From Mytilus galloprovincialis (taxonomy: Eukaryota > Mollusca > Bivalvia > Mytilida > Mytilidae): a DNA stretch of 64,000 nt. Where the stretch lies: positions 31,630,218-31,694,217 of the forward strand of contig NC_134846.1 of NCBI RefSeq assembly GCF_965363235.1, in the 5' to 3' direction. This document shows positions 2,641 to 56,060 of the stretch, one piece after another. The position numbers and the translations under genes are program-made. Every line of letters starts with the position of its first letter. The first letter of the stretch is position 1. Below the pieces are notes generated by a model. That model did not search any database and was not told the DNA's origin. It saw only the letters and a program-made list of their open reading frames with translations.

Positions 2641-3007
2641 ATGATTTTGTTGGTCTGTTATACTTAAGCCGCAATACTGACATATGTTCTTTGTTAACGA
2701 TCACATATGCACCTCTGTATACGTTAAATATCAAAACGAATTTAGTGCATATCCATTCATTTTCAAAAAATCGTACATTGAGCTGAGTTTTAGTTTACAT
2801 CATCGTCCAAAAGATGCATGAAATATTTGCCACTGAAATAAATTTAAAAAAAAACAAAACACAATCGGTCTAGTTTACTTCAAAGATTCCCTTGACCGGG
2901 GCTACTATAATATGTATGTAAGCATTTAGATACATGTAATCGCTAAATCTATTCGCTGCACCTTTTGCTTAGTTGGTATAGGAATGGCTAATCAGCTAAG
3001 GTCCTAT

Positions 3008-6000
3008 TAGTCCAGTCGATTTGTGCAGATTTTTGACAAAATTGCTCAGATTGTGGTAAAAGCATGAAATTTGGCATAGTAGTAGTATATGTCATGGACA
3101 ACATTTTAAGCTATGAACCCAATCTGAAAATCGAAATTAGCGGAAGAGGCGGCCATTTTAAAATGGCGGCCGTTTGATCTCAATAGATTAATAATAGAAA
3201 ATCATGAAAATTATATTAGAGAAGATATTGACATGAAATCTGGTTGATAGAATAACAGTGCTGAATCCAATTGTCTTGTAGAACAAAAGTTTTGAAATAT
3301 TACCCATATTGAATGGCGGCCATTTTGAAAAATCTTTTTTTTTTAAGCCAAAATATGTAGTCATTATCCGATATAATAAAAAAAATGCATTGTGGAAGAT
3401 ATATACAAATGTATTTGTTTGAGCTATATAAACAGGACAAAAAGCTAGCCTATCCCCCTCCCCCGAGTTATTCTTCTGTTTTGTAGCGGGTATAAAAGCA
3501 TTAAAATGCGGACACGAAGAGGATCATAAAATGAACTATTACTCTGAAAGCAATATTCGTGCAACCGCTTGTTCAACATAGAATAACATGAGAATTTTAT
3601 TTTATATGTAGAAATAAAGCAAGAAAATATGTGTATACCTGTCGTTTATAATAGTTGGCTGATTACTTGATAATTTGTTTTGTTGATATTGTTCATTTGA
3701 AACAACTTTCAAAAACCTTGATTGCAGACATAATAAATGAATTTTATATCATAAGTAATGTTATAAGAACATCAACTGCTCAAATGTTCTCAATTAACGT
3801 TGACAATATCTAACAATAAATGAAATGTACATGTACATGTTTTGTCAAATAACACTCTGTGTATCATATTCTATCACATTGTCCTCCACATTAACATAGA
3901 GTAGTACAACTTAATACTGCCTTTACACATTTTCAATTCCTTAGTTACCGTGTTTACTTTGACTTATAAGTTAAGCGCTTGCTGCAGGAAATTATTATAT
4001 AGTCATATGGTATATTCATCACAATTGACAAGGACTGTCATCTGAGGACTTCATATATATTGATTTTTTGGTAGCCATCTTGAATGATGGTCAATTTGAA
4101 AACATGAATCTACAATATATCATTATTCACTAATCTTATTAATTCACTGTTTTCATTCATACTTTTTTTACTAATTTATATTGGATATTCACAAAGAGGT
4201 CAGATAAGGCATGCACATGTTTACAAAATTAAGATATCAGTATCAAAATTTCTGTTACTTACACGTTTAAACTTTTTAAAACAGAAATTACGTATATACA
4301 TTTGTATTATATAATTTATGACCGAAAGTTTTGTTGTTTTGGAAAAGATCATAATTGTTGATTTCGAAAACACTGGAACTAGATATAAGTAAAACATAAT
4401 GTGCAATTAGACTGGAAGGAATGTGTAAAACGGCAATAGAGGACATGTAATGGTTTGCAATGCCAAGCAGATACAAAAAGAACAGTCATAGACATTTGAG
4501 CTGGCAATCCCTCTTTTGATGCAAGCATACGAAGATGTTGGGTCTTGAATTGGTTTTCCTTTCGCTCAATTCGAAACAGTTGAATGAGGGCTATGGAACT
4601 GCAGAAACCCTCCAGAATCACAAGGCAAAATGGCACAAACCATGTCAAACAAATTTTCAGACCTCAAAATATTTCATCAGCAAAAGGGAAAACATACTTC
4701 TGATGTTGAAGATAAGTTGCCAATTGGAAGGAAACAAAAAGTAACCAGACACTGTAAAGTGGAACTGGATCAAAAAGAACAATGAATGCAATTTTTTTTT
4801 TCTGTGGGGATGTATCTGAATGAAGATCTCCATGTTACATCGACATTTTCAAATCGACAAAAATAGGGCATGACTGTGCACATGTACTACAAGACATATT
4901 CCCTTTGCCAAAGTAAGAGCTGGAGATGTCAAATCACTAGTATCATGCTTGATGATTGATGAAACTTGACAACATAGCAAATAGGCAGAATAAAAGACAC
5001 AGAAAGAAAGCCAGGAATCTTTTATCCTTGGAGTTGTGCTTTCCTCAATAATGAAATACATTGATGGAACACGGTCTGGAAGAAGCACTGTACCAATCTC
5101 CAAGCTTGCAGATCACGCTAAATTGTACAGTCAACGCCTGGAAGATCTTGAGGTTATCATGGAAGGAAGAACTGATACAACGCAGTTAACAAAATTGGCA
5201 TGTAGCTGCTATAGGATATCTATAAGCATACAAGCAAGATAAATTAGTGCTCTTGATTTTCAACAAATGTAATCGTGAAGCTCTGAAACAGACCTAATAG
5301 AAAAAGGGTAAAAATGAAGGCATCACCATAGCCATAGCAGGCAAAATAGATATGCTTGATACTAAGAATAACTTTACAGGGACACTCAATAACAGCTGTT
5401 TACACGAATTAGTTCAACAGACATAAGTTTCCTTAGTAAAAATGATACAGCATGGCCAAACATAAAGACACAGTCCAGAAATATCGTTGAGTGGCAGACA
5501 AGACTTACCATTTCTCAGCTATAATAGTTCAATTGTGCAACTCGTCGTTGAAAGGATACAACTGCAACTTATCAGTCCTCAGATAGAGAGTAAGATGTCT
5601 CAAAGATTGTGGAACTGATTCATTTGGAAAGTCTACATTGAATGTCCCTGTAAACCTTTTTATAGTAACAAACTTATCTCTTCAAACTTTTCTAGTTACT
5701 TTGACTATGAAGAGGCCTTCATCATCACGACTAAAAGACATGGCCTGTTTCAAAACTTCCCCAACATATTCGTTGAGAATCCGGAGAAAGACGCAACCTT
5801 TCGTGTGTGCTTGCATATTATCTATGGCAGCTAGTATTCAATTTTTCAGAAGTGTTGTATTAATCATTCTTGTACAATTTACCAATATCATCAATTTCAA
5901 ATATTAAAACAATAGATGTTCCAAAGTGTGAGCCGTCACTGTTTTCTATCAATTGGGCGAGCCCCATTCCATGGATAACAGATTCTTGACTATTTTTTCT

Positions 6001-7162
6001 GTGTCTCGAATTCTGTCAAATCGCCCTGTCGTGCAGTTTTAACAAACATTTAGCATGATATCTGCTCCTGAAATATTAATCTCCAGCACTGAGTCTTGCT
6101 AAAAGAACAATGGTTAGTAGTTCAAGTGACAGTCACATACTCTATTGTCGATCATAATTGTCGAGGCTTCATGATGATAGTCAGATACCTCATCAAACTG
6201 AAAGAAAAAAATTCCTGCAATCATATTGCTCTTGTTAATTCATCACAACCGTGACTGGTTATATTACAATTATTTTCAATCCGTGACTCATCTTAGACTT
6301 TTTTCGTTTTTCCGGACAAAATATATTTTGATCTTAAGATTTGCTTTGACAGAATAAATACCTTTTGCCTTGTCATTCTCCCATTACATTGCCTTCATCA
6401 ACTTGGAACCGTTGTATGCTTACAGAAAATGACTGATTACCAGCTCAAATGTCTATGTCTGCTCTTTTTGTATTTGATTGACATTGTAAATCCTCATGTG
6501 TCCTCTCTTGACGTTACGGAATTCTTTCCAGTCTATTTATTATTTTTTCAGCTCCATTGACTTAATACCTACGTATTATTCCTTTTCAACATACAGTGGT
6601 CATAACTTATATTGTATATACCAATTTTTTGGTGGTAAAAAAGTTACTAAGGCCTACATGCTAAACTGCAATTAAAAGAATTTACGCATATTTTTTAAAT
6701 ACATTTATTAGTTAACATATGCATGCCTTTTTTCAGCACTTGGTGAATATATCCTATATGAATAGCAACAGTCATATAAATAAATGATAAGAAAAACTAG
6801 TTGTAAATGCATATAAAACTTAGTATTAATTCCAAAAACAATTTAGGATAGCGAATAATGATATATTTGAAATTTACGTTTCCAAAATGGCCACCATTCA
6901 AGATGGCCACCTAATACTTCAATAGTCCTCAGTTGATATCCTTTGTCATAAGATATACGAAAGTTTATCAAAATTGGTAAAGTAATATATTTTTTATATT
7001 TTTTTTAATAATTTTTATTAATTTTTTGGACATGATTTCAAAATGGCCTTTTCTGAATTGGGTCCATAGCTATAAATGTTAGTTATGACCTCAACTAACA
7101 CTCTGCCAAATTTTATGCTTTTACCACTATCTGAGCAATTGTTTCACAAATCGACTGGACTA
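3008..7162 (+). mobile_element. DNA transposon with long TIRs carrying an orphan-family gene remnant (copy 1)
   Basis: The left end starts TAGTCCAGTCGATTTGTG and the right end is its inverted copy. The inverted similarity runs about 110-120 bp inward, including the core AAGCATGAAATTTGG (left) and AAGCATAAAATTTGG (right, inverted). TAT lies directly outside both ends (3005-3007 and 7163-7165), as expected of a 3-bp target duplication. Subterminal copies of a GGCCATTTT/GGCCATCTTGAA motif occur inside both ends. The interior carries a decayed plus-strand remnant of an uncharacterised mollusc/cnidarian protein family (4535-5560). Copy 2 lies at 52310-56057. Superfamily is open; 3-bp duplications would fit Academ. 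Confidence 0.75.
4535..5560 (+). pseudogene. Decayed N-terminal part of an uncharacterised mollusc/cnidarian protein family
   Basis: Pieces in several frames match, from memory, the N-terminal order of a large uncharacterised protein family found in many mollusc and cnidarian gene sets. They are a KWHKPC motif near 4628-4645, a DCAHVLQDI-like stretch near 4872, ISKLADHAKLYSQRLEDL near 5098-5150, and HGxNIKTQSRN...LTISQL near 5450-5520. The frame is interrupted many times, with stops and shifts between these blocks, so this copy cannot be functional. The C-terminal nuclease-like part seen in copy 2 was not found here. The plus-strand open frame that begins at 4535 encodes 69 residues. Function of the family is unknown to me; its position between the TIRs suggests it is the element's own protein. 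Confidence 0.6.
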
Positions 7163-7783
7163 TATGAACCAATCCCGGCTCGTAAGCGTGTTACAGTGGT
7201 AATTGAAGAGAGGAAAATGATGCTCTGCTGTTAATGTCTTAATATACTGGTACATTACTATATAACATAGGTCCTTTTAAGTGGACCATTCTTGTATGGT
7301 ATGAGTTGGGGAAGGTCGAACGGTTACTTACATCCACTTAATTTGAACTCTCGTGGATGAATTAATTTTAGATGAAATTTTGCAAATATACATTGTAGGC
7401 TAGCATTTATAAACGAATCCAATCAAGAAAACTTAACGTTGATCACGTAGCCGTGTCGTGCGAACCCTGTCAGGGAGAAACGTATACTTCTATATTTACC
7501 AAAAATTGTTGTACTCGTTACGCTGGTAAAAATTGCCAAGCAAACAACAACCATTTGACCATTAAATGAGACCAAGGACAAAAGTCAAATGTTAAAAGGA
7601 AACTACAGAGCATATACATCTTTTACAAGAAATGGAAGTTTGCAGATCTTCTTCTTTAACACATAAAGCTGGTATGGATAGAAGGAGACAAGCGTTCACT
7701 CTATACATTCATTATATCTCATTAAGATTATAGTACAATATATAATATTGGTAAGTAAACGTCGAATATAATAAAAATTATAT
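7163..7783. other. Spacer downstream of the CSKMT exon
   Basis: Right flank of the transposon and presumed 3' untranslated or intergenic sequence of the minus-strand methyltransferase gene. No further feature was recognised. Confidence 0.45.
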
Positions 7784-12415: not shown

Positions 12416-12429
12416 ATGTTTAACCAGTT

Positions 12430-12900: not shown

Positions 12901-12914
12901 AATAAGTCAATATA

Positions 12915-15324: not shown

Positions 15325-15412
15325 GGAATAACATAAAATGTGGTGCACACTGAATAACCCGCGTAGCGGGTTATTTAACAGTGTGCACCACATTTTTTAT
15401 GTTATTTCTTCA
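15325..15412. repeat. Long hairpin centred on ACCCGCGTAGCGGGT
   Basis: AATAACATAAAATGTGGTGC, then CACTG, is matched in inverted order by CAGTGTGCACCACATTTTT and TATGTTATTTC. The centre is the perfect stem AATAACCCGCG/CGCGGGTTATT-like around GTA. The stem is about 38 bp with few mismatches. It may be the core or an end of a dispersed element. Confidence 0.7.
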
Positions 15413-15493
15413 TAGACAGAAAAAATATTACAGTCATTTCTTATAATTTAATTCTAAATTCCATTTTAAACCGTAGAAAACCATGAAAAAACG

Positions 15494-15575
15494 TTGATGA
15501 CGTCACGGTCACATGACTAAATTATGTCTATGGGCTCATAACAAAATAACGTCAGCCAATCAGAAGACGCGTTAC
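15494..15575. promoter_or_regulatory. Cluster of CRE, CACATGA and CCAAT motifs
   Basis: TGACGTCA (consensus CRE) near 15499, TCACATGAC near 15509, a second ACGTCA near 15549 and CCAATCAG near 15557 lie within 80 bp. The cluster looks promoter-like, but no gene start was found next to it and it may belong to a repeat. Confidence 0.35.
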
Positions 15576-16504: not shown

Positions 16505-16507
16505 ATA

Positions 16508-17612
16508 AGATTCCTCATTTTTGTCGAGTCTGCGACTTTGGTTGCAGAAAGCTCGACAAAGGGATAATGATCCAGCCGCTACAGCGACGGCGTTAGATAA
16601 CTACTTAAAAGCTTTATATTTTAGAAAGTTGAAGACCTGGATGCTTCATCCTTGGTATATGGATGCCTCATGTTACGAAGTTTCCGTCAGTCACATGTCC
16701 AATGTCCTTGACCTCATTTTCATGGTTCAGTGACTTCTTGAAAAAAAGGTTAAGATTTTTTGTAATGTTAAATTCTCTCCCATTATAAGTAATAGGATAA
16801 CTATATTTGGTAAGTCATACCTTGCAAGGTCCTCATGCCCGTCAGACAGTTTTCACTTGACCTCGACCTCATTTCACGGATCAGTGAACAAGGTGAAGTT
16901 TTGGTGGTCAAGTCCATATCTCAGATACTATAAGCAATAGGTCTAGGATATTTGGTGTATGGAAGGACTGTAAGGTGTACATGTCCAACTGGCAGGTGTC
17001 ATCTGACCTTGACCTCATTTTCATGGTTCAGTGGTTATAGTTAAGTTTTTGTGTTTTGGTCTGTTTTTCTTATACTGTATGCAATAAGTCTACTGTATTT
17101 GGTGTATGGAATGATTGTAAGGTGTACATGTCTAGCTGGCAGGTGTCATCTAACCTTGACCTCATTTTCATGGTTCAGTGGTCAAAGTTATGTTTTTGAG
17201 TTTTGGTCTTTTTTTCTAATACTATATGCAATTGGTCAACTATATTTGGTATATGGAAATATTTTATGATCTATATATATGTCAGCCACACAGGTTTTAT
17301 TTGACCTTGACCTCATTTTCACAGTTCACTGCTCAATGTTAAGTTTTTGTTTTGTGTTTTCTTAAACTATGAGCAATAGGTCAACTATATTTGTTGTATG
17401 GAAGATTTGTTTGCTGTACATGACTGCCTGGAACAGTTCATCTGACCTTGACCTCATTTTCATGGTTCATTGGTCAATGTTTAGTTTACTTGGTTAATGT
17501 TAAGTTTGTGTGACAGTTGTAATGAAGCTTTATATTTAGGACTATCAACATAATATCAATGATTAGTAAAGAAGGTGAGACATTTCAGCGTGTGCACTCT
17601 TGTATTGTATAC
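16508..17612 (+). mobile_element. Pearl/HINE-like repeat with about 150-bp tandem core
   Basis: Opens with a hairpin, TTTGTCGAGTCTGCGACTTT and GCTCGACAAAGG. It then holds about six degenerate tandem units of roughly 150 bp, each carrying TTGACCTCATTTTCATGGTTCA. It closes near GCACTCTTGT. A hairpin start plus a tandem core is the layout of bivalve pearl elements and Helentron-derived HINEs. The open frames inside are repeat-derived. Confidence 0.6.
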
Positions 17613-17934
17613 TTCTGAAAAACAAATATAAATTATCTTCCCTCTGGACTCAAGTGTTTCCCTTTTATTTTGCATGCGTTTAATTTAAAGAAAGCTCACT
17701 TTAACTTTTGGGCTTATTCAAGTTTTACCATTCCAGAATCATTTGACTTTTTTCAATCATGGTAAATTAAGACTTTTACCTTTCACCCATATGTTGTAAA
17801 ACTCAATTTTGCTTTGATATTTTTTCAAGAATTGAATCACAAGGCTGAATTTGATCAAATAAGCTCACTTTTGGATATTTATCACATATCACATATCACA
17901 TACTTAAATAATCTATTAAATTCCCACCACCTAG

Positions 17935-18045
17935 TCATACCTAGAAAAGCAAATGGTCGCTCCCCCTATGCATAATCGTAGGAAGGCGTCCCAGAAAAAA
18001 AAAATTAAAATAGCCTTGCCAGACGTCATAATTATTTAGACTAGA
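17935..18045. mobile_element. Partial copy of the CTGGCAAGGCTATTT MITE
   Basis: Contains AAATAGCCTTGCCAGACGTC and an end TAATTATTTAGACTA, matching the right half of the foldbacks at 30609-30709 and 32073-32194. The left arm is missing or diverged. Confidence 0.6.
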
Positions 18046-19300
18046 TGTCAACAAGTCAATCTCATGATGATGATGTAGGCCTTAACTGTTAGTTTACCAA
18101 GTAAGGCCTGTTTTGGTATAACGTTGATATGGATTCAACATAATGCATGACTTTCTTGACATTAAGATAAACAAAATTTAAACAAAGAAGAAAAGATTCC
18201 AACTTTTAATGACATTTTACGTTGACACTTTCGGCGCCGGAAATTGACAACGTTGATCTATGTATTGACACAACATCGGATGGGGTCGATTCCGGCATAT
18301 TCTGTTTAAAAAATCAGTAGCACTTAAAATTTATTGATGTCTTAAAATATATTCATTTTGTTTCAATGATATTTTATAGTTGATAATTAATTTCGAGAGA
18401 TGAATAGCTATCGTGTACTTCAGAAACACGTGAAAGGAGGACCACGCCCCCATAGTGGGGACATACAAAATAAAGATGACCGTTCTCCATTTCTACTCGA
18501 TAGAAGTGCCTAATTTTTTCATAACATCTACATTATGTACCAAAGATTATAAAATGAACGTAAAAAAAAAATCGAGGCGGAGATTTTTTAGAATCATCTA
18601 ATAATTATAGCAGACCAATTAACGTAATAGAGAAATAGGCGAAAATGGCGCCTTCTTCAATTTCGAAAAAAAATCTATAATTTTACAATTGATTGACACA
18701 TATTGATATTTTTATAGGGGTTATATATATAAGGACTCAGCTATTCTTGTTAGTTGAATGAATATTTACTTTAATAACAGAACCTTTTCCAATTTCTAAT
18801 TCTACCGGCCATGCAAGGAAAAACCTTCAAAAAAATGAGACCCCTACTTTAAAATGGGTACAATTTTTTGCCCTACTTTGGACACCCCTTTTCTTTACGG
18901 ATTTTGATGTGAAAACCTAGCGAAATTACACTGTAAAAATTTTAGGGTAATTGAAGGATATGCTTTTTTTTGTACCCCTTTTTAATATCGCTATTTAATT
19001 CAACAGTGCAGAAAATCGAAATCCGAAATTCTATGTTCAGATGTGAAAAAATAAGATTTTCTTTTATTTTTTTGTTCAAACATGAAAATAATAAGTAAAC
19101 TCATATATTTTTCTCTTATAAATGTGCTTACAATCAACAACATTTACCGCCGGTACTTTGCTGTAAACGAATGAATTTTTTTTACAAAAGCGCGCCATTT
19201 TTCAGCTGACGTCGGCCGACGCAAAAAAAGTCCAATTTTCGGCGTAGGACTACTGAGCGCCGCCGAATCACATTTTGGCCAAAAAGGCACATCCGGTTGT
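18046..19300. other. Presumed intron sequence, no exon recognised
   Basis: Lies downstream, in minus-strand terms, of the 19.3-kb splice donor. It contains CACGTG near 18427 and GC-richer stretches near 18230 and 19190-19290. No second exon of the membrane-protein gene could be identified. Confidence 0.4.
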
Positions 19301-19325
19301 CCTACTGATACATATTTAAACTTAC

Positions 19326-20003: not shown

Positions 20004-21345
20004 TGGGAACTTTATTAACCTTATCATATGGGTCATTTTCAAAAAATGTCGAATTTTCAGTACAGCCATGCAATTTTTTTTTATTTCTAATGGAAATTTC
20101 AGTTGTAATGGTTAAAATGAAAGCTTGTCAGATTTGTGATTCAGAACATTAATAATAAACACACCTTATATTTATTTTGATGAGATTAAACTCCATTTAA
20201 GTCCGATTTTTGGGGTATTGGTGTGTGTACAGTGTCAGAAAAACATATTTCAAATGATTTTTTTACGATTTTCAAAAACGAAGAAATTTGTCTGTCCTAG
20301 CTGTTATGTCTATCCTGTTACTATAATTGCTATGGTTACAGTAACAGGATAGAAAATTGTAGAAAAAAACTACGTTAATTTTTTTATCTTAACATGAAGG
20401 TGCAAAATGAATGAAATATTTCGTTGTTTGAATTCATTTTAAGGGTATAACGTCTTAATCTTCCCAATTAAGCATTTGCAGGTGCAATACTGATATCGGT
20501 AACAGGATAGACTTTTATATAGTGATATATCAGAAGCGTACGTTCCTGTTACCAATGAAATAAAGAGAAAAGTAAACTAACTTGTGAGGGATTTAGTTGA
20601 GGCATTTTTCAGTACAACCTAGAAAATTGGCAAATAATCTATTATTTTACAGAATGAACGTATATAGAAGTTTATTATCTTGAAAACCATCTAAATGGCT
20701 ACGTAAAACAGGATTAAAATTTTATCTAAACCTTTTCTTAATAACCCAAAATTTCTTTTGAAAATGGTAACAGGATAGACAAAATATTGTACCACCGATC
20801 AAAAAATGTTTCAAGATATTCTTGTATGACATCATTAAAATTGCATCTTTTTGTATGTTGTTCTTAAAGTACTGTTTGTTTTGATTTGCTTAGGGAGCTA
20901 CCATTTGATTTTTATGGGGGGGGGGGGCTAGGATGAAATATTTTGTCCTGCTTTTTTTTTAGTTGTAATCTCTGTCCTGCCTTTTTATTTTTTACTCTAT
21001 TCGGTCCTGCCTTTTTTTTACTAGTTTATCCTGACTTTTTTTACACAAATTGTCATCCTGCCTTTTTTTTTTTTACCAAGTTGCTCATCCTGCCTTTTTT
21101 TTTACTCAAAACTCCTGTCCTGCCTATTTTTTTTTTCAAATTTCCTCCTAGCCCCCCCCCCCCCCATAAAAATCAAATGGTAGCTCCCTTATGTAGATAG
21201 GTTGTTTGAAATAAAGACTGTTTTTTTAATAATTGAGGCATTTTTCAGTACAACCTAGAAAATTTTTAATAATTTTTAATAATTTTTTCAATTTCAAAAT
21301 TCGACATATTTTGAAAATGACCCATATATTTCTGATAGTTTTCCC
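20004..21345. mobile_element. Non-autonomous element with inverted ends around ATATGGGTCATTTTCAAAA
   Basis: The left end region (GGGAAC..., then ATATGGGTCATTTTCAAAA and TGTCGAATTTT) is matched in inverted orientation by 21290-21345. Internally TTTTTCAGTACAACCTAGAAAA is repeated directly at about 20609 and 21240. TAACAGGATAG occurs as a recurring motif, direct or inverted, near 20311, 20341, 20499 and 20768. A MITE at 20893-21188 is nested within it. Exact ends and target duplication are unclear. Confidence 0.5.
20893..21188. mobile_element. Harbinger/Tourist-like MITE with G/C-tract ends
   Basis: Ends GGGAGCTACCATTTGATTTT and its inverted copy are each followed inward by TATGGGGGG-type tracts. 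TTA lies outside both ends (20890-20892 and 21189-21191), the TWA duplication of PIF/Harbinger elements. The interior is a degenerate tandem of TCCTGCCTTTTTTTT-like units, which produces a spurious phenylalanine- and proline-rich open frame. Confidence 0.8.
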
Positions 21346-21924: not shown

Positions 21925-24730
21925 AATTGAGAATGGAAATGGGGAATGTGTCAAAGAGACAACAAACCGACCATAGACAACAGCAGAAGGTCCCGCACCC
22001 GGAAGCGTCCTTCAGCTGGCCCCTAAACAGATATATATATATACTAGTTCAGTGATAATGAACGCCATACTAAACTCCAAATTGTACACAAGAAACTAGA
22101 ATTAAAATAATACAAGACTAACAAAGGCCAGAGGCTCCTGACTTGGGACAGGCGAAAAAATGCGGCGGGGTTAAACATGTATATGAGATCTCAACCCTCC
22201 CCGTTTACCTCTAGCTAAGCCAATGCAGAAAAGTAAACGTATAACAATACGCACATTAATATTCAGTTCAAGAGAATTCCGAGTCTGATGTCAGAAGATG
22301 TAACCAATGGAAATAAACAAAATGACAATAATACATAAATAACAACAGACTACTAGCAGTTAACTGACATGCCAGCTTCAGACTTCAATTAAACTGATTG
22401 AAAGATTATGTCTTCATCATATGAATATCAGGCACAATCCTTCCAATTAGGGTTTTAGTATCATACCATCATAAGATATATGAGAAGAACATAACCCGTG
22501 TCATGCCAACAACTGGTTTTAAATTTAAATAAATGTGTTTAGTTCCGATGCAAAGACCCTAAAAGTGAATCAATATTAACCCAAAATATGCAATCTTTAA
22601 TGACCTGACAACAGTATCGTAACTATATCCCTTCTTAATAAGTCTATTTCAAGGTGTTGTTAGCTTCTGAGGTGAATACTGACATTTTTGTGCTTTGTAA
22701 AGAATATTTCCATAAAATATTGGATGTGAAATACCTGAAAGTATACTGAAGAAGTCTGCATGTTGAGCTATATTTACGAATGATGTCCTTATACCGATGA
22801 TAAAATTGAGAAAATGTTTTGACTAGTTTGTGATATCGAAAACCCTGGTGTAACAATTTTTCAGTAATACATAATTTTCTCTCGTTAAAATCTAAAACAT
22901 TGTTACATACACGAGCGAATCGTACAAGTTGAGATATATATATAAACACCGTAAGATGATGGCAAGGGAACGTCACCATCTAAAAATGGATAATTAACGA
23001 TAGGAAATCAGAAATCATCTCTATTATCATAAATTTTAGTATTAAGCTTTCCGTTAATGATAATTTTTATAGATATCAAGATCGAGGAAAGGGCAGTGGT
23101 CATTGTTAGTATTAGCTTTATTTAAAGTAAGTTCAACAGGATAAATTTCTTTAGTATACATACTGAAGTCGTCATTATTGAGAGCCAAAATATCATCCAA
23201 ATATCTTAAAGTTATGGTGGCCGGATGCGGCCATTTCGCCTTTTCGCGTTTTCACGTTTTCTCCTTTCACTTTCACGGGAAATCGAGAATCGAGCAATTG
23301 GGAAATCGGGAAATCGAAAAATCGAGAAAGCGAAATCGAGAAATCGGGAAATCGGGAAATCGAGAAATGGAGAAAGCGAAATCGAGAAATCAAGAAAGCG
23401 AAAACGCGAAAACGCGAAAGCGAAAACGCGAAAACGGGAAATGAAATAGATTTCTCGATTTCGCTTTCTCGATTTCTCGATTTCCCGATTTCCCGATTTC
23501 CCGATTTCCCGATTTCTCGATTTCTCGATTTCTCGATTTCGCTTTCTCGATTTCTCGATTTCCCGATTTCCCGATTTCTCGATTTCTCAATTTCGCGTGA
23601 AATTGAAAGGAGAAAACGCGAAAACGCGAAAAGGCGAAATGGCCGCATCCGGCCACCATATTATTAAATTTGTGTATCAGATGTTGTTTTGATGGGTCTT
23701 TGCTGATTTTTATCATAAATTGTAACTCATAGCAATACAAAAAAGGTCCTCAATAAATGGTGCACAGTTAGTTCCTATAGGAATTCCGATAACCTGACGA
23801 TATACTGAATCTCCAAAGCGAACAAAAATGTTATCTAGTAAAAATTCAAGGGTAGTTATAGTATCAAAGCATGTCCAATTGACATAGTTTTTTTTGTTTA
23901 TTGCTACTAAAAAATGACCTAAAAGAGTTTGAACATATATATTCACATTCTAACTTTTTAATTTCCAATTTAATTAAGTGTGTGAATGTTTTCTTAATGA
24001 GAATGTGAGGCAATGTGGTATATAGGGTAGAAAAATCAAAACTTTTAACAGATTCAAAATCACCAATATAAGCATGCAATTTATCAAGTACTTCCAACGA
24101 GTTCTTGACACTCCAAAAGTAATTAATTCCACTGCTTTCGAACTTGCCTTATTTGAACAATTTATTATCAGGTTTTTGATTGTACCAAGTGTACTTGTAA
24201 GAAGAATAGATAATTTAGTAGTGGAACAATGGCTTGAAGACGAAATAAATCTATATTTGTAATATTTGTAAGGTGTTTTGTGTAGCTTCGGAAGACAATA
24301 CATAGTTGTGACTTTCATTGTTTTTGGTTCTGCTTGTAAAGCGGTAGCTAAAAGTTTATGTTTGATACAGATGTCGTTTTCTGAAAATGGAGTCAGTTGG
24401 AATGTTGGTGAATTGGTGATTTCTTTTTGTAGAACCTAAATGTAAAATTTACGTCAAACAATAATAATGTTATTAGCAGCTTTATCGGCCGGGACAAAAC
24501 AAATTCCTTGGTTAGTTCTTTTAGTTTATGTTTGATACGAGAAATATGTTTATTGTGGTTATTGTTAAGAGTAAAATGTTCTTTAAAATGTTGAATACGT
24601 ATATCAACTATGTTCATCACTGATTTAAAAAAAGAATCCAAAGATGTTTTGCTAGCTAGCTTTTTCCCGTTTTATCCATTTCAAACAATAAGTACGGAGT
24701 GAGTCGTGGATGATATTACGATACTCATTC
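21925..24730 (-). mobile_element. Reverse-transcriptase retroelement with its 3' tail (family A)
   Basis: The minus strand carries, in order from 24.73 kb down: an N-terminal region, LPKLHKTPYKY, SFDFSTLYTTLPH, IPIGTNCAP, a YLDD catalytic box next to DDILALNNDDF, and SQLVRFAR with FYHRYKDI. The 3' tail follows to 21925. This is a reverse transcriptase of a type common in mollusc and cnidarian genomes, either Penelope-like or another non-LTR class; no endonuclease was seen. The copy is broken and 5' truncated. A 444-bp foldback (23215-23658) has inserted into it immediately upstream of the YLDD box in coding order. Confidence 0.7.
23215..23658. mobile_element. Foldback element: 444-bp near-palindrome built of GAAATCGA/GAAAACGC units
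   Basis: Ends are TGGTGGCCGGATGCGGCC and its inverted copy, with TA on both sides (23213-23214 and 23659-23660). Each arm continues inward as CGCCTTTTCGCGTTTTC and then as tandem 8-9-bp units of the type GAAATCGAG/GAAATCGGG, inverted in the other arm. Arms meet near 23450. The many charged open frames (repeats of NREIEKSR) are by-products. A TA duplication is Tc1/mariner-like, but no such ends are visible. Confidence 0.8.
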
Positions 24731-24996: not shown

Positions 24997-25742
24997 TCAT
25001 GACGTCTTTACACTAAATCCATTGGATGTTGGATGTGTACGGATTGATAGTTTAGTCTTAGATGCATGATTTTTTTTATTAGTTGTGAGTGGTTTTGAAA
25101 TAGCTGTCAGATAACTGCGAGTACTCTCAGATCTGTTCCTAGTGGCTTTTTGTTGTCGGGATGTACAAGTACCCGGCAACGTCTACTTGTATTTTTGTCC
25201 ATCTGATTAGTTAAGCCTTTTTCAGCTGATTTTTATAGTTCGTTCTTATGTTGTACTGTTTTACCACTGTCCCGAGTTAGGGGAGGGTTGGGACTCCGCT
25301 AACATGTTTAACCCCGTCACATTATTTATGTATGTGCCTGTCCCAAGTCAGGAGCCTGTAATTCAGTGGTTGTCGTTTGTTTATGTGTTACATATTTGTT
25401 TCGTTCATTTTTTATATAAATAAGGCCGTTATTTTTTCTCGTTTGGATTGTTTTACATTGTCATTTCGGGGCCTTTTATAGCTGACTATGCGGTATGGCC
25501 GTACGGTGACCTATAGTTGTTTTTCGTTCATTTTTTTTTTATATAAATAAGCCCGTTAGTTTTCTCGTTTGAATTGTTTTACATTGTCATATCGGGGCCT
25601 TTTATAGCTGACTATGCGGTATGGGTTTTGCTCATTGTTGAAGGCCGTACGGTGACCTATAGTTGTTAATGTCTGTGTCATTTTGGTCTCTTGTGGACAG
25701 TTGTCTCATTGGCAATCATATCATATCTTCTTTTTTATAAAA
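24997..25742 (+). repeat. Family B retroelement tail; holds the empty site for transposon copy 2
   Basis: Shares with other copies the modules GACGTCTTTACACTAAATCC, CTGTCCCAAGTCAGGAGCC, TATAAATAAGGCCGTTA, GCCGTACGGTGACCTATAG and an end CATATCTTCTTTTTTA. Internal stretches such as CATTTCGGGGCCTTTTATAG appear twice, from 25463 and from 25581, so part of the tail is duplicated. The stretch TTTAT/TAGTTGTGAG at 25079/25080 is uninterrupted here and is the site occupied by the 52310-56057 transposon in another copy. Confidence 0.7.
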
Positions 25743-47800: not shown

Positions 47801-50800
47801 TCACTGGTAATTTTCAGGGAATCTGTATAATCACTAATGATTTTAGTGATTCTACATAATCCCTGAAAAATCAGGGATTCTACATAATCACTGATTATAC
47901 AAATTCACTATAACATATACAAGTTGTTAACACCGTCGCGACCACCGTATTTTTATAATCCCCATTTCTCGAATTTTGCGACTTTCGTCAAAGGCTGTAT
48001 CCATAAACCGATTATAAATGTCGAGGAAGCCGAAGAATGATGTAAAGTGGACATTGATGCGACTGTCGTGTAAGCGAGAGGTTTAGCGCTATAAAACCAG
48101 GTTCAATCCACCATTTTCTACATTTGAAAATGCCTGTACCAAGTCAGGAATAATAATGACTGTTGTTATCCATTCGTTTGATGTGTTTTTGACATTTGAT
48201 TTTGCCATGTGATTAGGGACTTTCCGATTGAATTTTCCTCGGAGTTAAGTATTTTTGTAATTTTACTTTTTTCTCGACCGACGGAATACCGGTATGTGAT
48301 CTCCATGTTCCGCTTAATTTATTCTGCAACTTTTGTAGTGGCTAAGACAAATATGGAAAAGGTATGTTTAATGGAATAATCGATTTTTAAATTATGCAGC
48401 CATGCAGATGAAAATCTAAAATACAACCTTCAAGTAATCTTTGAACTGTTTAAACTGTGAATGCACAATGAATTCATCAAAATCCACGTTAGCCACGAAA
48501 TCATAACCTTGTAATGTCTCTATGCAATGGTATAAAGCAACCTGCTGGTCGTGGAACCCTTGAGGTGACGGTCGCCGGAAAACTGTCCAAGGGATATCTA
48601 AAATAGCAATAAATTATAGTTTTGATACTTTTAAAGTAATAATAAACTCAAATTGGTTTACACATATTAAATTCACATACTTTCAGTTATAATTTGATAT
48701 ATTTTATTCTTCAAATGCAAATATGTTTCTTCTTATAAACTTTTTCGACATCATTTCTTTCAGTTAATAGACCAAGTAGTGTGTTAAAATTAATCAAATA
48801 GTGTACAATTATAATCATATTCATGTTTTCAGCTGTTTATTTTTCATGAATTTCTATTTCATAATAAAGGGTGTTTTTTTTTTAATTTTACACTATTTGG
48901 AAATCTCCAAGATGACGCAGATATTCCATATTGGTTAAATTAAGTCATGGTACCGCTGGGGCAGATCCATACATTTTCAAAAGGGGGTTCCTAGCCCAGG
49001 ATAAAAAAGGGTCCAATTATATGTAACCATAGAAATGCATTGATCGTAAAAAAAGGGGGGTTCAAACCGCCGGAACTACACCCTTTTCTGGATCCGCCAC
49101 TGGGTGGTTTCAATCAAACTGTATATTGGACCCACAAACACTGGTTTCTGAAATAAATTACTTAAAAGTTATAACCTACCTTTCATTTCGTCGTAGCTGT
49201 AATTTGTAAAACACTCCTTTCTGTCCTTTATCTTGCAATCCAAATTGTCAGCTGAAATATTTACCCCATTTATATCTCATATGTTAAAAGCAAGATATTT
49301 TTATTAATTATTTATACTAATATCTAGTATCCTTTCCTTTTCATTTCGAGAAGATGAAAGTAAATAGATTATATCTAAATAATATAAGAACAGAATATTT
49401 GCTGTCATTGTCAATTATACAATTATCCAACAGAGTCCAAATAACGTGAATTTGAGTATCTATATGTAACCTTCAACAATGAACAAAAATCACACGACAG
49501 CAACCAACGAAAGCCACGGATACAAGCGTCTGACTTTGGACATGCACATGTAGAAAGTGGCAGTGTTAAACATGTTTTGAGAACTCTACCCAACCTGTAC
49601 ATGTGACAGAGATAAAAAGAGATTACACAGTCTAACACAAGATCAAACTGAAACCATCAGTTAACTAGGACATCATATTGTCACGAAGCTAAGAAAAAGC
49701 AACGCAAACTAAAGACAAAAGACACGGAATACTGGTAGTTAGTACTATTGAAACCTAGAGATGACCAAAGCCAAAAAATCATGTTCTCCCAGATCCAACG
49801 TCTTCAAAATTTGAATGAAAGGAGAGTTTGTGTATAAATCCTTGAGATTATATTCATCTAACTTCAAAAGGGGGTATTTTTTTTCTAAAAAAAATATTCT
49901 GATCCACAATTTGAAGAAAAATATATTTTGGTCAAGCATATGACAAAAAATTATATGATGAAGTTATATTTTGACTTCGTAATACCCCCTTTTTCCCTTG
50001 AAGTTAAATGGTTGTTTCCTTATTTATTCAGAATATTTTTATAAGATTATCATTTTATATGAAGCGGAACATGATATAGAGTAGTCGGCCTTGACATTTC
50101 CTGTCAGTATACTAGATGAAGTACCGTTCCTCCTAACTCTTCCTTTATAAATTATCTCGCATGTATGCACTTTTGATAGTATCAAATGTTGTAATTTAAT
50201 TGTCAAAATTTTTAAAATGCAAAACTTTCAAAGCCAAAAAGATGTATCATTGCTTATACAACTGCTCAATAGATATCTAACCATAAGTGGCTCACCTTAA
50301 ACTGAACTTATCACAAACATGAATTTCTATACTATGCACACTATATGCAAAGTCAATAGTTCATGCCTAAGGGACGGATTAAATGGTCATTTCGACTTGG
50401 AAATGAGATACATGTATGTCAAGATTATGCAAATGATATACTAATTCATAAAAATACATGGACTTACCATTAGTGGCTCCCCTTAAAATAACTAAATCAG
50501 AAACTGTACAACTTCTGAAGTTTCGCTTCAGTCCGAGTCTAGTTTCCCCTCAGTCCTAGACTTGTTTAGCCTCCTCAATCCTAGACTTGGTTAGCCTCAG
50601 TCCTAGACTAAGTCGACCCAACGAAATAAATAACCAAAAGTAGGTTGTTATACTAACCTGTTGCTTCTCCTGGCAATGGAGCAGGAAATATACCCATTTC
50701 TAAAACACCTTTCTGCTGGTAATATTTCAACACTTTAAAAGCGTCCCTGTTTAGTGGTTGGACCAGTGTTATAAACTTGTCTACTCCCATCAAAAGATTG

Positions 50801-51201
50801 TATTCGAACCACTCAATAAGTTTGATAGGTTTTTCGGTGCCGTATGCCATCTTGGAACACACTGCTAGCTTATCTTGTTGTCTTGTTGGATACGTTACTT
50901 TGAGTACTTGTAAAGTCGAGTTATAAGGAGCACCATCTTTAACAATACTGATATGAGTAATATTTTTTTTTGTTATTTTACATATAAACTGACATGCATA
51001 CATTTTTGGCCATCCGTTTGAGTACTGCCGCCAGCGCTTTGCTTTAACACGTGCATGTTGTTGGTCACTAGTAAACAATATGCAGTTGAAAATGTCATAT
51101 CCTCTACACCATCCAGTAATTACTATCGAGTCATGTTTTGTCCAATTTCCATTTAGCTTTCCTATGGCTGAATAAGCATACATTCTTCCCGTGTGTATAT
51201 A
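41806..51201 (-). CDS. GT92 (DUF23) family glycosyltransferase, last five exons
   Basis: Exons are 50658-51201, 49180-49251, 48428-48597, 44760-44977 and 41806-41980. All joins keep frame with AG/GT borders, giving 392 residues to a TAA at 41806-41808. The GT92 core reads LAVCSKMAYG, LIEWFEYNLLMGVDKF, then QQVALYHCIE, VANVDFDEFIV (the DxD-type metal site), GWxVSGDGF-like and DMVVHHYRTC. GT92 enzymes are Golgi type II proteins; C. elegans GALT-1 adds galactose to core fucose. The first listed exon starts in phase 0 after a splice acceptor, so an upstream exon with start codon and membrane anchor is missing; it was not found. Introns hold many mobile elements. The 44760 donor lies within a minisatellite-like unit. 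Confidence 0.88.
42025..42222 (+). repeat. Family B tail fragment in GT92 intron
   Basis: Contains TATAAATAAGGCAGTTAG, CATTTCGGGGCTTTTTATAG and GGCCGTACGGTGACCTATAG and ends CACATCTTCTTA. Confidence 0.7.
42890..44759 (-). repeat. Minisatellite of about 27-30-bp units derived from a splice-donor-like sequence
   Basis: Degenerate tandem units on the plus strand read like AATAAACCTACCATGTGTAT followed by CCCAGAA. By length the array holds about fifty units and is interrupted by a dispersed repeat at 43529-43910. On the gene's strand each unit contains G/GTAGGTTTATTC. The genuine GT92 donor, G/GTATGTTTATTC at 44760/44759, lies in phase with the array at its edge. All open frames inside (such as VYPKNKPT repeats) are artefacts. 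Confidence 0.85.
43529..43910 (+). repeat. Family D retroelement-type tail inside the minisatellite
   Basis: Contains GATGCGACTGTCATACAAG, AACCAGGTTCAATCCACC, GCCTGTACCAAGTCAGGAA and TTTCCTCGGAGTTCAGTAT. The same series is at 48050-48275. It splits the minisatellite array, so it entered after the array had formed. Confidence 0.65.
44978..45706. other. GT92 intron, nothing recognised
   Basis: No repeat or exon was recognised. A ribbon of family-B-like text may start near 45255 (TTGTATCGTTTTTG) but is too weak to call. Confidence 0.4.
45707..47932. mobile_element. 2.2-kb element with long ends made of short palindromes
   Basis: The left end TTGTATATATGTTACAGTG, then AATTTGTATAATCAGGGAT, is matched in inverted orientation at 47740-47932. 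Both ends are built of repeated modules such as AGGGATTATGTAGAATCCCT and AGTGATTATATATAATCACT, each nearly self-complementary. The interior has no recognised transposase; a 92-codon minus frame at 47237-47515 is unassigned. Target duplication is not clear. It lies in the 3.4-kb GT92 intron between exons ending 48428 and starting 44977. Confidence 0.65.
46344..46436 (-). other. tRNA-like sequence (SINE-type head?)
   Basis: On the minus strand GGTAGCAGTGGGGATAAGGC resembles an A box, and GGTACGAGTCCCGT, about 50 bases on, resembles a B box within a short T-arm-like stem. The acceptor ends do not pair, so it is not a functional tRNA gene. It could be the head of a SINE or a decayed tRNA copy. 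Confidence 0.35.
48050..48275 (+). repeat. Family D tail
   Basis: Same modules as 43529-43910: GATGCGACTGTCGTGTAAGC, AACCAGGTTCAATCCACC, GCCTGTACCAAGTCAGGAA, TTTCCTCGGAGTTAAGTAT. Confidence 0.65.
48954..49102. mobile_element. hAT-type MITE copy, diverged
   Basis: Left arm GCTGGGGCAGATCC and right arm GGATCCGCCACTG are inverted. Same family as 35804-35936. The 8-bp flanks do not clearly match. Confidence 0.6.
49252..50657. other. GT92 intron with a partial GGG-AAATGGTTGTTTCC MITE
   Basis: Around 49850-50025, CATCTAACTTCAAAAGGGGG and CCCTTGAAGTTAAATGGTTG resemble the arms of the foldback at 10699-10948. A short motif ATTAGTGGCTC/ATAAGTGGCTC recurs near 50284 and 50471. No exon was recognised. 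Confidence 0.45.
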
Positions 51202-51290
51202 CTGTGTGAAATAAATAATAATAGTATACAATATATATTTCCTATGTGATATATGTTATTGTATATACCGTCCATATATAATTATTATAA

Positions 51291-52211: not shown

Positions 52212-52309
52212 ACGTCTTTTTACTAAATCTATTGGACGTTGGGTGTGTATTGATTGGATTGATATTTAAATCTTTGATACTATTATTATTCATGTACATG
52301 AGTTTTTAT
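52212..52309 (+). repeat. Family B tail, left part, interrupted by the transposon
   Basis: ACGTCTTTTTACTAAATCTA and TTGGACGTTGGGTGTGTAT correspond to the tail at 24999-25079. It stops at TTTTTAT, and the tail resumes at 56061. Confidence 0.75.
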
Positions 52310-52615
52310 TAGTGGGAGATATTAGCAAGCAAAATCGAAGGAATTGTGCAAATGATGATACAAGCATGAAAATAAGCACGAAGCATCATTATTATATACT
52401 TTTTAAGAAAAAACTGCTGGCCATGAAAAAAAATCATTTTTTCAAGATGGCCACGGCCTTTTTAAAAAATGGCTGTTTTTTTAGTTCAAAAATACTTATT
52501 TTTCTACAAACATGTTCCTTGACCTTCTTTTAGTGTAAAATATTATATGGTTTGATAGCGACATTACTTGCATTTGACGTATTTAATAGAAATTAATATT
52601 TGACTCTTCATGGTC

Positions 52616-52772
52616 TGCGCATGCGCGAAAATGTAGCAAAAATCACACATAAACATTTGAACTATTTACTATTTACTTGGTGCTTTTGGATTTTTAATGA
52701 TATTATGAATTGGTTTGAAAAAATTATTTAAGGTTATGAAACAAATGCATTTATCAATTTTGCGCATGCGCA
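52616..52772. promoter_or_regulatory. Two NRF1-like palindromes inside transposon copy 2
   Basis: TGCGCATGCGCG at 52616-52627 and TGCGCATGCGCA at 52761-52772 match the NRF1 consensus. They stand 145 bp apart in otherwise CpG-poor sequence, upstream of the gene remnant, so they could be the element's promoter. Confidence 0.5.
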
Positions 52773-52999
52773 AACGATTTATAGACATACAGAGTGATTT
52801 GCACCAACTACCACAGGGCACACTGATGTAAATCATTTCGTAAATATATCTTGGTCGTCATTTCATTCCTCTAAAAAATTATACTCTTAAAGTAACTGTA
52901 ACTTCTATGATGCCACTGTTTGAAAACACGCCCACTCAGTTGAATTGAGCAATCATACGATGGGTAGGTGAAAAAGTGGTTAAACTTTCAAAATCCCGG

Positions 53000-55360
53000 C
53001 CAAACATCAATTATAGCTGCAGATCAACCACTTTTGGTATTGCGTAAGTAAGTTCAGTATGGATGGCCAGATTTGTACAGATAATATAAGTTTATCGTTT
53101 TGTTTTTGGAAAGTACTTTAAAATGGCTTTTTTGAAATTCATGGGGTTATATTGCCTGAAAGTGGATGGACTTGCTCTCACTGAAGCCGACATTGCAACA
53201 CCTAGAACGTCATATTATTTTCAGATATATTCAAATGAACCTAGGTTTAGACATGCGAATCATAACTGAGTGTGTTTTGCTGAACAATTAATGTCTAAAC
53301 GCAGAAAATATATCTCATGAATCTGTATCGTTCGATAATTTGATAGACTGGTGCAAGGAAAGAGAGTCATCTCGACCAACGTTTAATATCTGTTGTTCAA
53401 TCATATATATTAAGAACTTTTGTTCTTTCGGCGGTACACCCATTTTATGAGTCAGATATCGTACAAACAGTCCAAATAAAGCATGATACCGTATTTTTTT
53501 GGTCCAGATCATGAAAATTATTTTCGACAGTTACGGATCCATCTCCAAGATATGACTTCCCTTCACGAGCATCACCAAGAAGGTGCCAATGGTTATTTTA
53601 CTGTACGTAAGACTAACAAGTTTTTTTTCTAATATCACAATCGATCAGGCACAAACACAGAATAATGCAATTGAGAAGGGCGATGTCTGTGCCACCGAAG
53701 ATTCCCTTGAAACAATGGATGGATGGATGTCAGTAGACTGGTAGATTAATTTGAACGAAATAGTGGTTTTAGTCATTCTTAAACAGATGGTCGAAGACGA
53801 AGACGATACGAAAACACAAAAGGAATTTTTCGAAAAGAGTCAAAGGCTTTCTAAAGTTATGACCGAGTTTGGAAATCCATCTTCTGATTTTACTTTTTTC
53901 TAGAACAGTCGTAAGATTTGTACACAATTGATGGTTGATTTTTTAAAGGAAATTATTGACTCCAAGGCAGGTGAGATATGTATGCGATCTCTTTTCTATA
54001 CTTTTCATTTCCTGTAAATGTAGACAGTTTGACTTGGAAGATGTATTTATCCATGAAAACAAAATTGCTTCTCTGTTTTTGTCTACGGATGTTACTTTAA
54101 ACAGTGTTATTAAATCGCAGCAAATGGGTATACTTGAAACATTGTGAAATTTGCCGCTAACTGATCCAAATTCTGACACGCGTTTGGGGGGGGGGGGGGG
54201 GCATCAATGGTCAATTCCAAGCCACCACGTGCTAAACTATTTGATGATTATGCAATCGATGTCATACTGCCTCACATAAAATCTTGCATCGAAAAGTATT
54301 GACGAGTAGACATTGTATTTGATGTTTACTAAATGAATAATTTAAAGGCTGGACCGAGAAAAAGGCAAGGTGCTGGTGCTAGACGGAAAGTTGTTGGTTC
54401 TGATAGAACGCCAAGAATTTGGAGTCGTTTTCTTTGTGAAGATCATGGCAACAAAACGGAATGATTCAAGTTTGTTTCCGACAGAATTGCTTCTTTGGAG
54501 ACTTGTAAAAACGTTTATGTTACTCAAGGTGAAATATTCTTTGCAATTTCAATACGGATACTTCCCTGCTATACCTTTTAACCAAGAACAAGCAGATACA
54601 CGTATGTGTGTCAATGATAAGCTTGCTGCTGAAAATGGCTGATAAAAGTAATTTTAAGTAGTACTGATACAGATGTAGTAGTATTAGGATTGCAGCTCTC
54701 GCAGTCTTAGGTATGGACAAAGTGTGGATAGGTTTTTGAGGGAATAAAGACTTTCAATGGCTTCATGTATATGACATATCAAATGTGCTTGGTCTACGTG
54801 CAGCTGCTTTTATTTCCTTTCATGCATTCTGTGAATGTGACACTGTGTAAGCATTTGGTGGGAAAGTGAATAGGTCAGCTTGGCAGACATTGGAATTATT
54901 TTCCGATGTAAAGGATGTTTTTGCTCGCTTTAGTTTTGTATGAAGACAGAGACATGGACATCATAGAAGCATTTGCTTGCATCATTTGTCAGGAAGCAGC
55001 GCCCTTACTATGCTATTCTCCCTACAAGAAATTCTCTTCCGGAGCACATCTAAAGAGAAGCATATCAAGGTGGGCTCAACCGGATTTGTGCATTCGACAG
55101 GTACACATACCAAGTCATGAACACTGGGTTTGGATGAAAGAAAAACAAACACTGACAGTTGGAAACCAAAATGCACTTCTTTGGCTGCATTTGCACCCTC
55201 GTAACAGAAACAATGGAAAAGCGGATGCAAAAAATCCAGCGTTGTTGATAACTGTAAACGATTCCGTTCTGGCCTACCTTGTACGTGTTTGTGTTGGCAA
55301 CTATCAGATAATGATACGGAATGCAAACTGCCTTTTCTAACCAAACTAGGTATTTGAACT
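53000..55360 (+). pseudogene. Decayed C-terminal part of the orphan family with XPG/FEN-like nuclease motifs
   Basis: Blocks in changing frames follow the order of the same uncharacterised family as in copy 1. They are AADQPL near 53010; MAFLKFMG near 53120; LRIHLQDMTSLHEHH near 53530; FTVRKTNK near 53600; TIDQAQTQNNAIEKGD near 53636-53680; RVDIVFDVY near 54305; KVVGSDRTPR near 54390; QADTRM near 54590; STDTDVVVLG near 54660; SFHAFCECDTV near 54817-54846. The acidic positions in DVY, ADTR, DTD and CD match in spacing and order those of XPG/FEN/PIN-type nucleases. Many stops and frameshifts lie between the blocks, so this copy is dead. The conserved D/E-rich middle (DQA..QNNA) could be a separate catalytic domain; this is inference. 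Confidence 0.65.
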
Positions 55361-55424
55361 CAACAAATTAAGCGATATCTCTTTTAAATTAGAAGAAAAT
55401 GAAAAAGATAATGAAATTTTAAAC

Positions 55425-55905
55425 GTTTTTGTCGCCATTTTGGAACCGGAAGTTACTTTTTCGTCGTGTATGTATTGTGTCATCGTACTTTAGGAACAGT
55501 AATCTACGTTTTATCAAATTTGCATTGGATTATACCTACAACGCAGCTTTCAAGGGATTTCTAAATGGAGCCAATTTTAACGATTTTGCCACTATTTTGG
55601 AACCGGAAGTAACTTTTTCGTGTTTTATGTATTGTTTCATCGTACTTTAGGAACTGTTATTTTCGTTTTATCAAATCTTACTTTGGGTTATACCTAAAAC
55701 ACAGCTTTTAAAGGATTTATGAAATGTGGCAATTTTCAACGTAATTGCCGCCATTTTTGAACCGGAAGTCACTTTTTCGTCATTTATGTATTGTTTTATC
55801 GTACTTTAGGAACTTTTATTTACATTTTATCAAAATTGACTTTGGATTATACCTATAGCACATCTTTCAAAGGATGTACGAAATGTAGCGAATTGGATAT
55901 GACGC
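55425..55905. repeat. Three tandem units of about 158 bp near the transposon's right end
   Basis: Each unit opens with a GCCATTTT-like block followed by GGAACCGGAAGT (starting near 55442, 55599 and 55758) and contains CATCGTACTTTAGGAAC-like text. ACCGGAAGT is an ETS-type site and GCCATTTT/GCCATCTT a YY1-type core. Confidence 0.8.
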
Positions 55906-56060
55906 CATTTTTAAAATGAGCGGTGGCCATCTTGAAAAAATGAAAATTTTTGATGGCCAGCAGCTGATTTTTTTTAATTATCGTTTAGTCAACCTCTATA
56001 CCAAATTTCATGCTTGTATCACGATTTGCACAATTATCTCCATAATATCTCCCACTATAT

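What the first reader, a model, noticed from the sequence alone, without database searches (positions are those of the whole stretch)
52307..56060. Transposon copy 2: orphan nuclease-like gene inside a TIR element with a visible empty site
Ends TAGTGGGAGATATTA are inverted and flanked by TAT. The sequence outside aligns on both sides to a dispersed tail whose uninterrupted copy lies at 25.0 kb (junction 25079/25080). Joining the flanks minus one TAT restores that tail. This shows a real insertion with a 3-bp duplication. The interior gene belongs, from memory, to a protein family widely listed as uncharacterised in mollusc and cnidarian gene sets. Its C-terminal part shows XPG/FEN-like acidic motifs (DVY, ADTR, DTD, CD). 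If the family always sits in such elements, a host-annotated orphan family is really a transposon protein.
Basis: partly seen in the sequence, partly recalled or inferred. Interest (0 to 1): 0.88.

Follow-up and report, generated by a model that had tools for sequence, protein, structure and literature searches.

The report
Dead Academ-like transposon in mollusc-like DNA
A decayed cut-and-paste transposon with clear ends and a visible insertion footprint carries the wreck of a large transposase and nuclease gene, most likely of the already named Academ kind, and a second, probably related wreck lies elsewhere in the same stretch.

Summary
Window 52310-56057 has perfect 15-bp inverted ends inside longer imperfect inverted repeats and TAT on both sides. 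The joined flanks minus one TAT align through the junction with the 25.0-kb paralogue (E 1e-18). This is a real insertion with a 3-bp duplication.

The interior is a wrecked gene (about 52968-55354) in all three frames.

A second element, 3008-7162, has other ends (TAGTCCAGTCGATTTGTG), TAT on both sides, end sequence related to the first (E 2e-6) and, by recalled probes only, pieces of the same family.

A 3-bp duplication plus a nuclease-like domain fits AcademX (PMC10045372); Academ is amplified in bivalves (PMC10294476). The FEN/XPG likeness is motif-level only: no Pfam match, hhalign 0.9%. No Academ sequence or animal genome could be compared.

Verdict: a real but dead copy, probably of a known superfamily.

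The parts
52307..52309 (.). target-site duplication TAT, left (element 2)
   Evidence: single TAT in the 25.0-kb paralogue
52310..52480 (+). left terminal inverted repeat; outer 15 bp 52310-52324 perfect
52968..53263 (+). gene remnant: segment with DQPL, possibly part of a DDE core
   Evidence: recalled probe: E 8e-11 for 52968-53105; only E 0.40 for 53108-53263
53349..53741 (+). gene remnant: IPYFFGPDHENY...TVRKT...IDQAQTQNN, presumed end of the DDE core (the E of the recalled HEQ reads T)
53787..54144 (+). gene remnant: linker region (EFGNP, HEN)
   Evidence: translation; recalled probe E 4e-4 for 53887-54084 and E 7e-5 for 53983-54138
54201..54940 (+). gene remnant: FEN/XPG-like segment with VFDVY, ADTR, DTDV, HAFCECDT
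   Evidence: (recalled probe, E 1.5e-30 over two pieces)
54985..55354 (+). gene remnant: C-terminal part with a cysteine-rich end
   Evidence: 54985-55074 weak (28.1 bits, E 0.025, below the shuffle maximum of 28.9; E 0.003); cysteine-rich end 55205-55354 seen in translation only
55415..55894 (.). three subterminal tandem repeats of 159 bp, 83% matches
55900..56057 (-). right terminal inverted repeat; outer 15 bp 56043-56057 perfect
56058..56060 (.). target-site duplication TAT, right (element 2)
25002..25164 (+). uninterrupted paralogue of the target (empty site), junction 25079/25080
3005..3007 (.). target-site duplication TAT, left (element 1; no empty site shown for it)
3008..3123 (+). element 1 left terminal inverted repeat; outer 18 bp 3008-3025 perfect
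3876..3932 (-). element 1: C-terminal cysteine cluster of the same gene family (KCVKAVLSCTTLC*CGGQC)
   Evidence: E 0.015, 28.9 bits, equal to the shuffle maximum; 36.2 bits, E 4e-6, element alone, no composition correction
5006..5590 (+). element 1: N-terminal half of the gene, inverted extra copy
   Evidence: recalled probes
5745..6105 (-). element 1: N-terminal half of the gene, copy in the orientation of the C-terminal cluster
   Evidence: recalled probes; 5866-6105 only
7057..7162 (-). element 1 right terminal inverted repeat; outer 18 bp 7145-7162 perfect
7163..7165 (.). target-site duplication TAT, right (element 1)

Best explanation
It is a dead, probably internally deleted copy of a DNA transposon of the Academ kind (nuclease-bearing, AcademX-like lineage). 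Shown: ends, 3-bp TAT duplication, empty site, a gene broken over several frames, a second element with TAT and related ends. Inferred: an intact relative makes one long protein with an N-terminal metal-binding part, an RNase-H-like DDE transposase core, a FEN/XPG-like nuclease domain and a C-terminal cysteine cluster. The DDE core would bind the terminal and subterminal repeats, cut the element out and join it to a target cut with a 3-base stagger; host fill-in gives the TAT duplication. The FEN-like domain would help trim or cut strands at the ends. This copy can no longer make the protein; whether it was already broken when it inserted is not known.
For: Perfect 15-bp ends within longer inverted repeats and TAT flanks. 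Empty-site alignment through the junction. Recalled-family probes match in collinear order over 52968-55074; the best pieces score 78.2, 64.7, 50.8 and 48.5 bits against a maximum of 28.9 in 50 shuffled probe sets. Second element 3008-7162 with TAT and TAGT... ends; its left end is 78% like the right end of element 2 over 51 bp, E 2e-6 in a two-sequence comparison; three of the four ends carry GTGNTANAAGCATNAAATTTGG, which occurs nowhere else in the window at up to 3 mismatches (0.13 expected; the pattern was made from these ends, so the exact matches are by construction). Literature, passages only: AcademX makes 3 or 4 bp duplications and encodes a nuclease (PMC10045372); Academ amplified in bivalves, 100 curated consensus elements, mean 5565 bp (PMC10294476); Academ listed with 3 bp duplications (PMC5199201).
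Against: No Academ protein was available, so kinship to Academ was never compared directly. Pieces of element 2's own gene do not find element 1 (in the only shared part, the cysteine-rich end, E 3.5 at 3938-3894; the best hit elsewhere, 8060-8119, 26.6 bits, E 0.001, lies opposite a methyltransferase frame and I judged it chance). FEN/XPG likeness is not significant. The DDE core is not shown in the window's own letters; only the recalled probe touches DUF6589 weakly (E 1.3e-4, 21.2 bits, cut-off 27; E 4.2e-4). The left end of element 2 does not match the shared motif within 3 mismatches. Element 2 is 3.75 kb against a mean of 5.6 kb reported for bivalve Academ. That the host is a bivalve is my inference from memory.
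Confidence: 0.72

Rival explanations
1. A transposon of another superfamily with 3-bp duplications (Zator, a Harbinger relative, or CACTA/EnSpm) that captured a piece of an unrelated host gene of the uncharacterised family.
For: Zator makes 3-bp duplications and Harbinger and its relatives none or 1 to 4 bp (PMC10045372, passages); 2-3 bp for CACTA and gene capture by transposons are recalled.
Against: By recalled probes the gene family lies in both elements of the window and the elements share end sequence, which suggests that it is the elements' own gene. No Pfam transposase was found in the pieces scanned (pieces of the recognised gene only, not the whole element). The ends read TAGTG...CACTA, the reverse of CACTA ends, and TAT is not the TTA/TAA of typical Harbinger (both rules recalled).
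Confidence: 0.12
2. A new transposon superfamily distinct from Academ whose sole protein is this uncharacterised family.
For: No direct comparison with Academ was possible; no Pfam model matched the FEN-like half of the recalled probe, and no paper in the library holds the word DUF6589.
Against: A nuclease together with 3-4 bp duplications is already described for AcademX, and bivalve Academ elements are already catalogued.
Confidence: 0.12
3. A host pseudogene with chance inverted ends.
For: The gene is broken, and mollusc gene sets list many members (recalled). Inverted ends with equal 3-mers do arise by chance at looser match levels (29-48 pairs in 10 Markov sequences, 76 in the window).
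Against: Perfect 15-bp ends with TAT and an empty site that aligns through the junction; a second element of the same build.
Confidence: 0.02

Closest known systems
Academ superfamily, AcademX lineage (Kapitonov and Jurka 2010; Kojima 2020; both known here only through citing papers)
   Same: inverted ends, 3-bp duplication, nuclease-like domain by motif, presumed DDE core; abundant in bivalves
   Different: this copy is shorter (3.75 kb), shows no match to the N-terminal half and is wrecked; sequence kinship to a named Academ element was not compared
AcademH lineage
   Same: same superfamily; fungal members might carry DUF6589 (my inference)
   Different: AcademH makes 9 or 10 bp duplications and carries a helicase; here 3 bp
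FEN-1 / XPG / GEN1 / EXO1 structure-specific nucleases
   Same: order of VFD, an acidic EGEAQ/EEADTR motif, DxD and G-x-D; spacing between the last two acidic motifs 61 in PDB 1b43 and 57 in the recalled family
   Different: no significant profile match
Mu killer of maize (recalled)
   Same: element 1 carries a long inverted duplication of part of a transposase-like gene
   Different: arms are only about 66-82% alike, and nothing is known of transcription

Membership tests
Academ (AcademX) | terminal inverted repeats | tested here: met
Academ (AcademX) | 3 or 4 bp target-site duplication | tested here: met
   TAT in both elements; empty site for element 2
Academ (AcademX) | nuclease domain, XPG-like (the XPG name is recalled) | tested here: inconclusive
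   motifs present in remnants; no Pfam match, hhalign E 0.058, 0.9%
Academ (AcademX) | DDD/E transposase core | tested here: inconclusive
   window pieces: no Pfam match; recalled probe weak to DUF6589
Academ (AcademX) | transposase sequence groups with Academ proteins | not testable with these tools
   no Repbase/Dfam proteins on hand; Kojima 2020 and Yuan and Wessler 2011 not held
AcademH | 9-10 bp target-site duplication | tested here: not met
   3-bp duplication
AcademH | helicase | tested here: inconclusive
   none in the pieces scanned, which are parts of the recognised gene only
Zator | 3-bp target-site duplication | tested here: met
   rule from PMC10045372
Zator | Zator transposase | tested here: inconclusive
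   no Pfam transposase in the pieces scanned; no Zator sequence compared
CACTA/EnSpm | 5'-CACTA/G terminus | tested here: not met
   5' end is TAGTG; rule recalled
PIF/Harbinger | TTA/TAA target-site duplication | tested here: not met
   duplication is TAT; rule recalled; the wider group varies from 0 to 4 bp
PIF/Harbinger | Harbinger DDE gene | tested here: inconclusive
   no Pfam match in the pieces scanned

The most novel reading that the evidence does not exclude
One of the largest unnamed protein families of molluscs and cnidarians is a two-nuclease transposase: a DDE core fused to a FEN/XPG-like nuclease and a cysteine cluster. Its core is the same family as DUF6589, so that two orphan families are one transposase superfamily, and the FEN-like part takes part in strand cutting at the ends.
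Probability: 0.3. Interest if true: 0.5.

Novelty: new member of a known kind. Interest (0 to 1): 0.3.

Why it matters
If the family is the Academ transposase, many 'uncharacterised' genes in mollusc and cnidarian annotations are transposon genes and should be masked. No Pfam model matched the family above its cut-off in my scans (window pieces and recalled probes), which could explain why annotators keep counting them as host genes. A DDE core fused to a FEN-like nuclease also raises a testable question about how the second strand is cut.

Tried and rejected
Relatives in the collections on hand: none confirmed in viral contigs (15 pattern matches, 0 confirmed; 0; no pattern match), genome contigs (0; 0), plasmids (a 114-aa probe) or phages (protein, DNA). 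These hold prokaryotes and viruses, so absence says little. Host genome: not held. DUF6589 and XPG_I through the genome search: no match in the one phage record searched; DUF6589 rang in 0 of 14 control genomes, so that search shows nothing. Rfam at gathering thresholds: nothing in the window. Solved structures: chance-level matches only for recalled probes. PHROGs: one chance-level match, E 0.23. Other Pfam matches of recalled probes (SLATT_1, SecD_1st, BTB; E about 0.1) were taken as chance. Structure prediction and fold search were not run: the gene is split over frames and no relatives were found for an alignment. More inverted ends with equal 3-mers up to 9 kb apart: 76 pairs against 29-48 in 10 first-order Markov sequences. 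Pairs whose end begins with four equal bases were counted but not printed; among those printed only the two elements join TAT with TAGT ends.

Full report
Observation. The element runs 52310-56057 with TAT on each side (52307-52309, 56058-56060). The 15-base end TAGTGGGAGATATTA occurs exactly twice in the window, at the two ends and inverted (4 matches at up to 3 mismatches, 2 of them exact; 2.64 expected at that tolerance). The inverted similarity goes about 165 bp inward, with gaps (84% over 75 bp, 93% over 30 bp; arms of 132 nt, 74%). Joining the flanks minus one TAT gives a sequence that aligns with 25.0 kb through the junction (131 of 187 columns, 25 gap columns, E 1e-18; the nearest gap ends 8 columns left of the junction). 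In the whole window the crossing piece is 77%, E 1.7e-8, with only 7 bases of left flank in it, and the left flank also matches separately at 25002-25046, 84%. The paralogue has one TAT, so a 3-bp duplication is the reading that also keeps the ends symmetrical.

The gene. No open frame of 150 codons with a common start lies in the element; the longest stop-to-stop frame listed there is 142 codons. The three forward frames carry pieces that change frame repeatedly and are broken by stops. Pfam found no significant match in the ten stop-free pieces scanned (one hit, E 0.12). From memory the pieces belong to a very common uncharacterised family of mollusc, cnidarian and fish gene sets. They hit the element in order: 52968-53105 (E 8e-11), 53108-53263 (E 0.40), 53483-53626 (E 9e-10), 53887-54084 (E 4e-4), 54201-54922 in two pieces (E 1.5e-30) and 54985-55074 (E 0.025, 28.1 bits). 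The best of 50 shuffled probe sets reached 28.9 bits, so the last piece alone would not count; the best real piece has 78.2 bits. No probe hits the element before 52968, so the N-terminal half is deleted or decayed beyond recognition. The C-terminal part carries VFDVY, ADTR, DTDV and HAFCECDT. In the recalled DDE segment the position of a conserved E (HEQ) reads T in the window, which fits a dead copy.

FEN/XPG likeness. Motif order matches FEN-1: VFDG, EGEAQ, QDYDSLLFG, GTDY followed by GIGxKKA. The distance between the last two acidic motifs is 61 residues in PDB 1b43 and 57 in the recalled family. hhalign puts GCDT on GTDY in that register, but with E 0.058 and 0.9% probability, from two shallow alignments. 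Pfam, PHROGs and PDB searches give no FEN match. I treat the nuclease as likely but unproven.

DDE core. The recalled segment with DQPL and HEQ touches Pfam DUF6589 at E 1.3e-4 (21.2 bits; cut-off 27) and E 4.2e-4 in a longer probe. The window's own pieces do not. No paper in the library holds the word DUF6589.

Second element. At 3008-7162 lies another element with 18-bp perfect ends TAGTCCAGTCGATTTGTG, TAT on both sides, and longer ends that are 81% alike over 104 bp. No empty site was sought for it. Its left end is 78% like the right end of element 2 over 51 bp (E 2e-6, two-sequence comparison). A motif made from the aligned ends, GTGNTANAAGCATNAAATTTGG, fits three of the four ends and nothing else in the window at up to 3 mismatches (0.13 expected); the three exact matches are by construction, and the left end of element 2 falls outside. 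By recalled probes the element holds the N-terminal half of the same gene family twice, in opposite directions (five pieces of 36.2, 31.6, 30.8, 28.1 and 27.7 bits against a maximum of 28.5 in 100 shuffled sets, so two of the five are no better than shuffles), and a C-terminal cysteine cluster at 3932-3876 (28.9 bits in the window, equal to the shuffle maximum; 36.2 bits, E 4e-6, when the element alone is searched without composition correction). Pieces of element 2's own gene do not find it. The inner arms, about 4026-5419 and 5608-6948, are 66-82% alike. It looks like an element in which the gene's front half was duplicated in inverted orientation and the middle was lost.

What is known. A 2023 paper states that in the Academ superfamily AcademH makes 9 or 10 bp duplications and AcademX 3 or 4 bp, and links this to the helicase and the nuclease they encode (PMC10045372, passages). 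A bivalve study reports a bivalve-specific amplification of Academ, with 100 curated elements and a mean of 5565 bp (PMC10294476, passages). An insect study gives 3-bp duplications for Academ (PMC5199201, passages). An older paper mentions a RecQ helicase in Academ (PMC3627910, passage), which is not what is seen here. Repbase lists Academ among its DNA transposon superfamilies and cites its description of 2010 (PMC4455052, passages). The paper that set up AcademH and AcademX and the DDE survey are not held. No paper in the library holds both whole words Academ and XPG; the XPG name is recalled.

Verdict. The insertion is real and dead. It is most likely an Academ-type element of the nuclease lineage. 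The host is probably a bivalve, perhaps a mussel: the 25.0-kb tail resembles, from memory, an abundant mussel repeat. That was not tested.

Noticed in passing
3008-7162: A second element with TAT duplication and related ends carries an inverted duplication of what recalled probes read as the front half of the same gene (arms about 4026-5419 and 5608-6948, 66-82% alike); such a structure could give hairpin RNA, as Mu killer does in maize (recalled).
   Followed up: partly
55415-55894: Three tandem 159-bp repeats just inside the right end, with GCCATTTTGGAACCGGAAGT-like stretches; perhaps subterminal binding sites.
   Followed up: partly
20893-21188: A 296-bp stretch with perfect 14-bp inverted ends GGGAGCTACCATTT flanked by TTA, like a small Harbinger-type MITE.
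   Followed up: no
10956-19307: Perfect 14-bp inverted ends CAGTAGGACAACCG flanked by ATA, 8.35 kb apart; a large element or chance.
   Followed up: no
50653-51231 (-): 192-codon open frame that matches the first part of a glycosyltransferase family 92 domain (Pfam E 6.6e-8).
   Followed up: no
7784-8455 (-): 223-codon open frame with a methyltransferase domain (Pfam E 2.6e-9).
   Followed up: no
23206-23667: Dense array of short inverted repeats built on GAAATCGAGAAATCG-like units.
   Followed up: no
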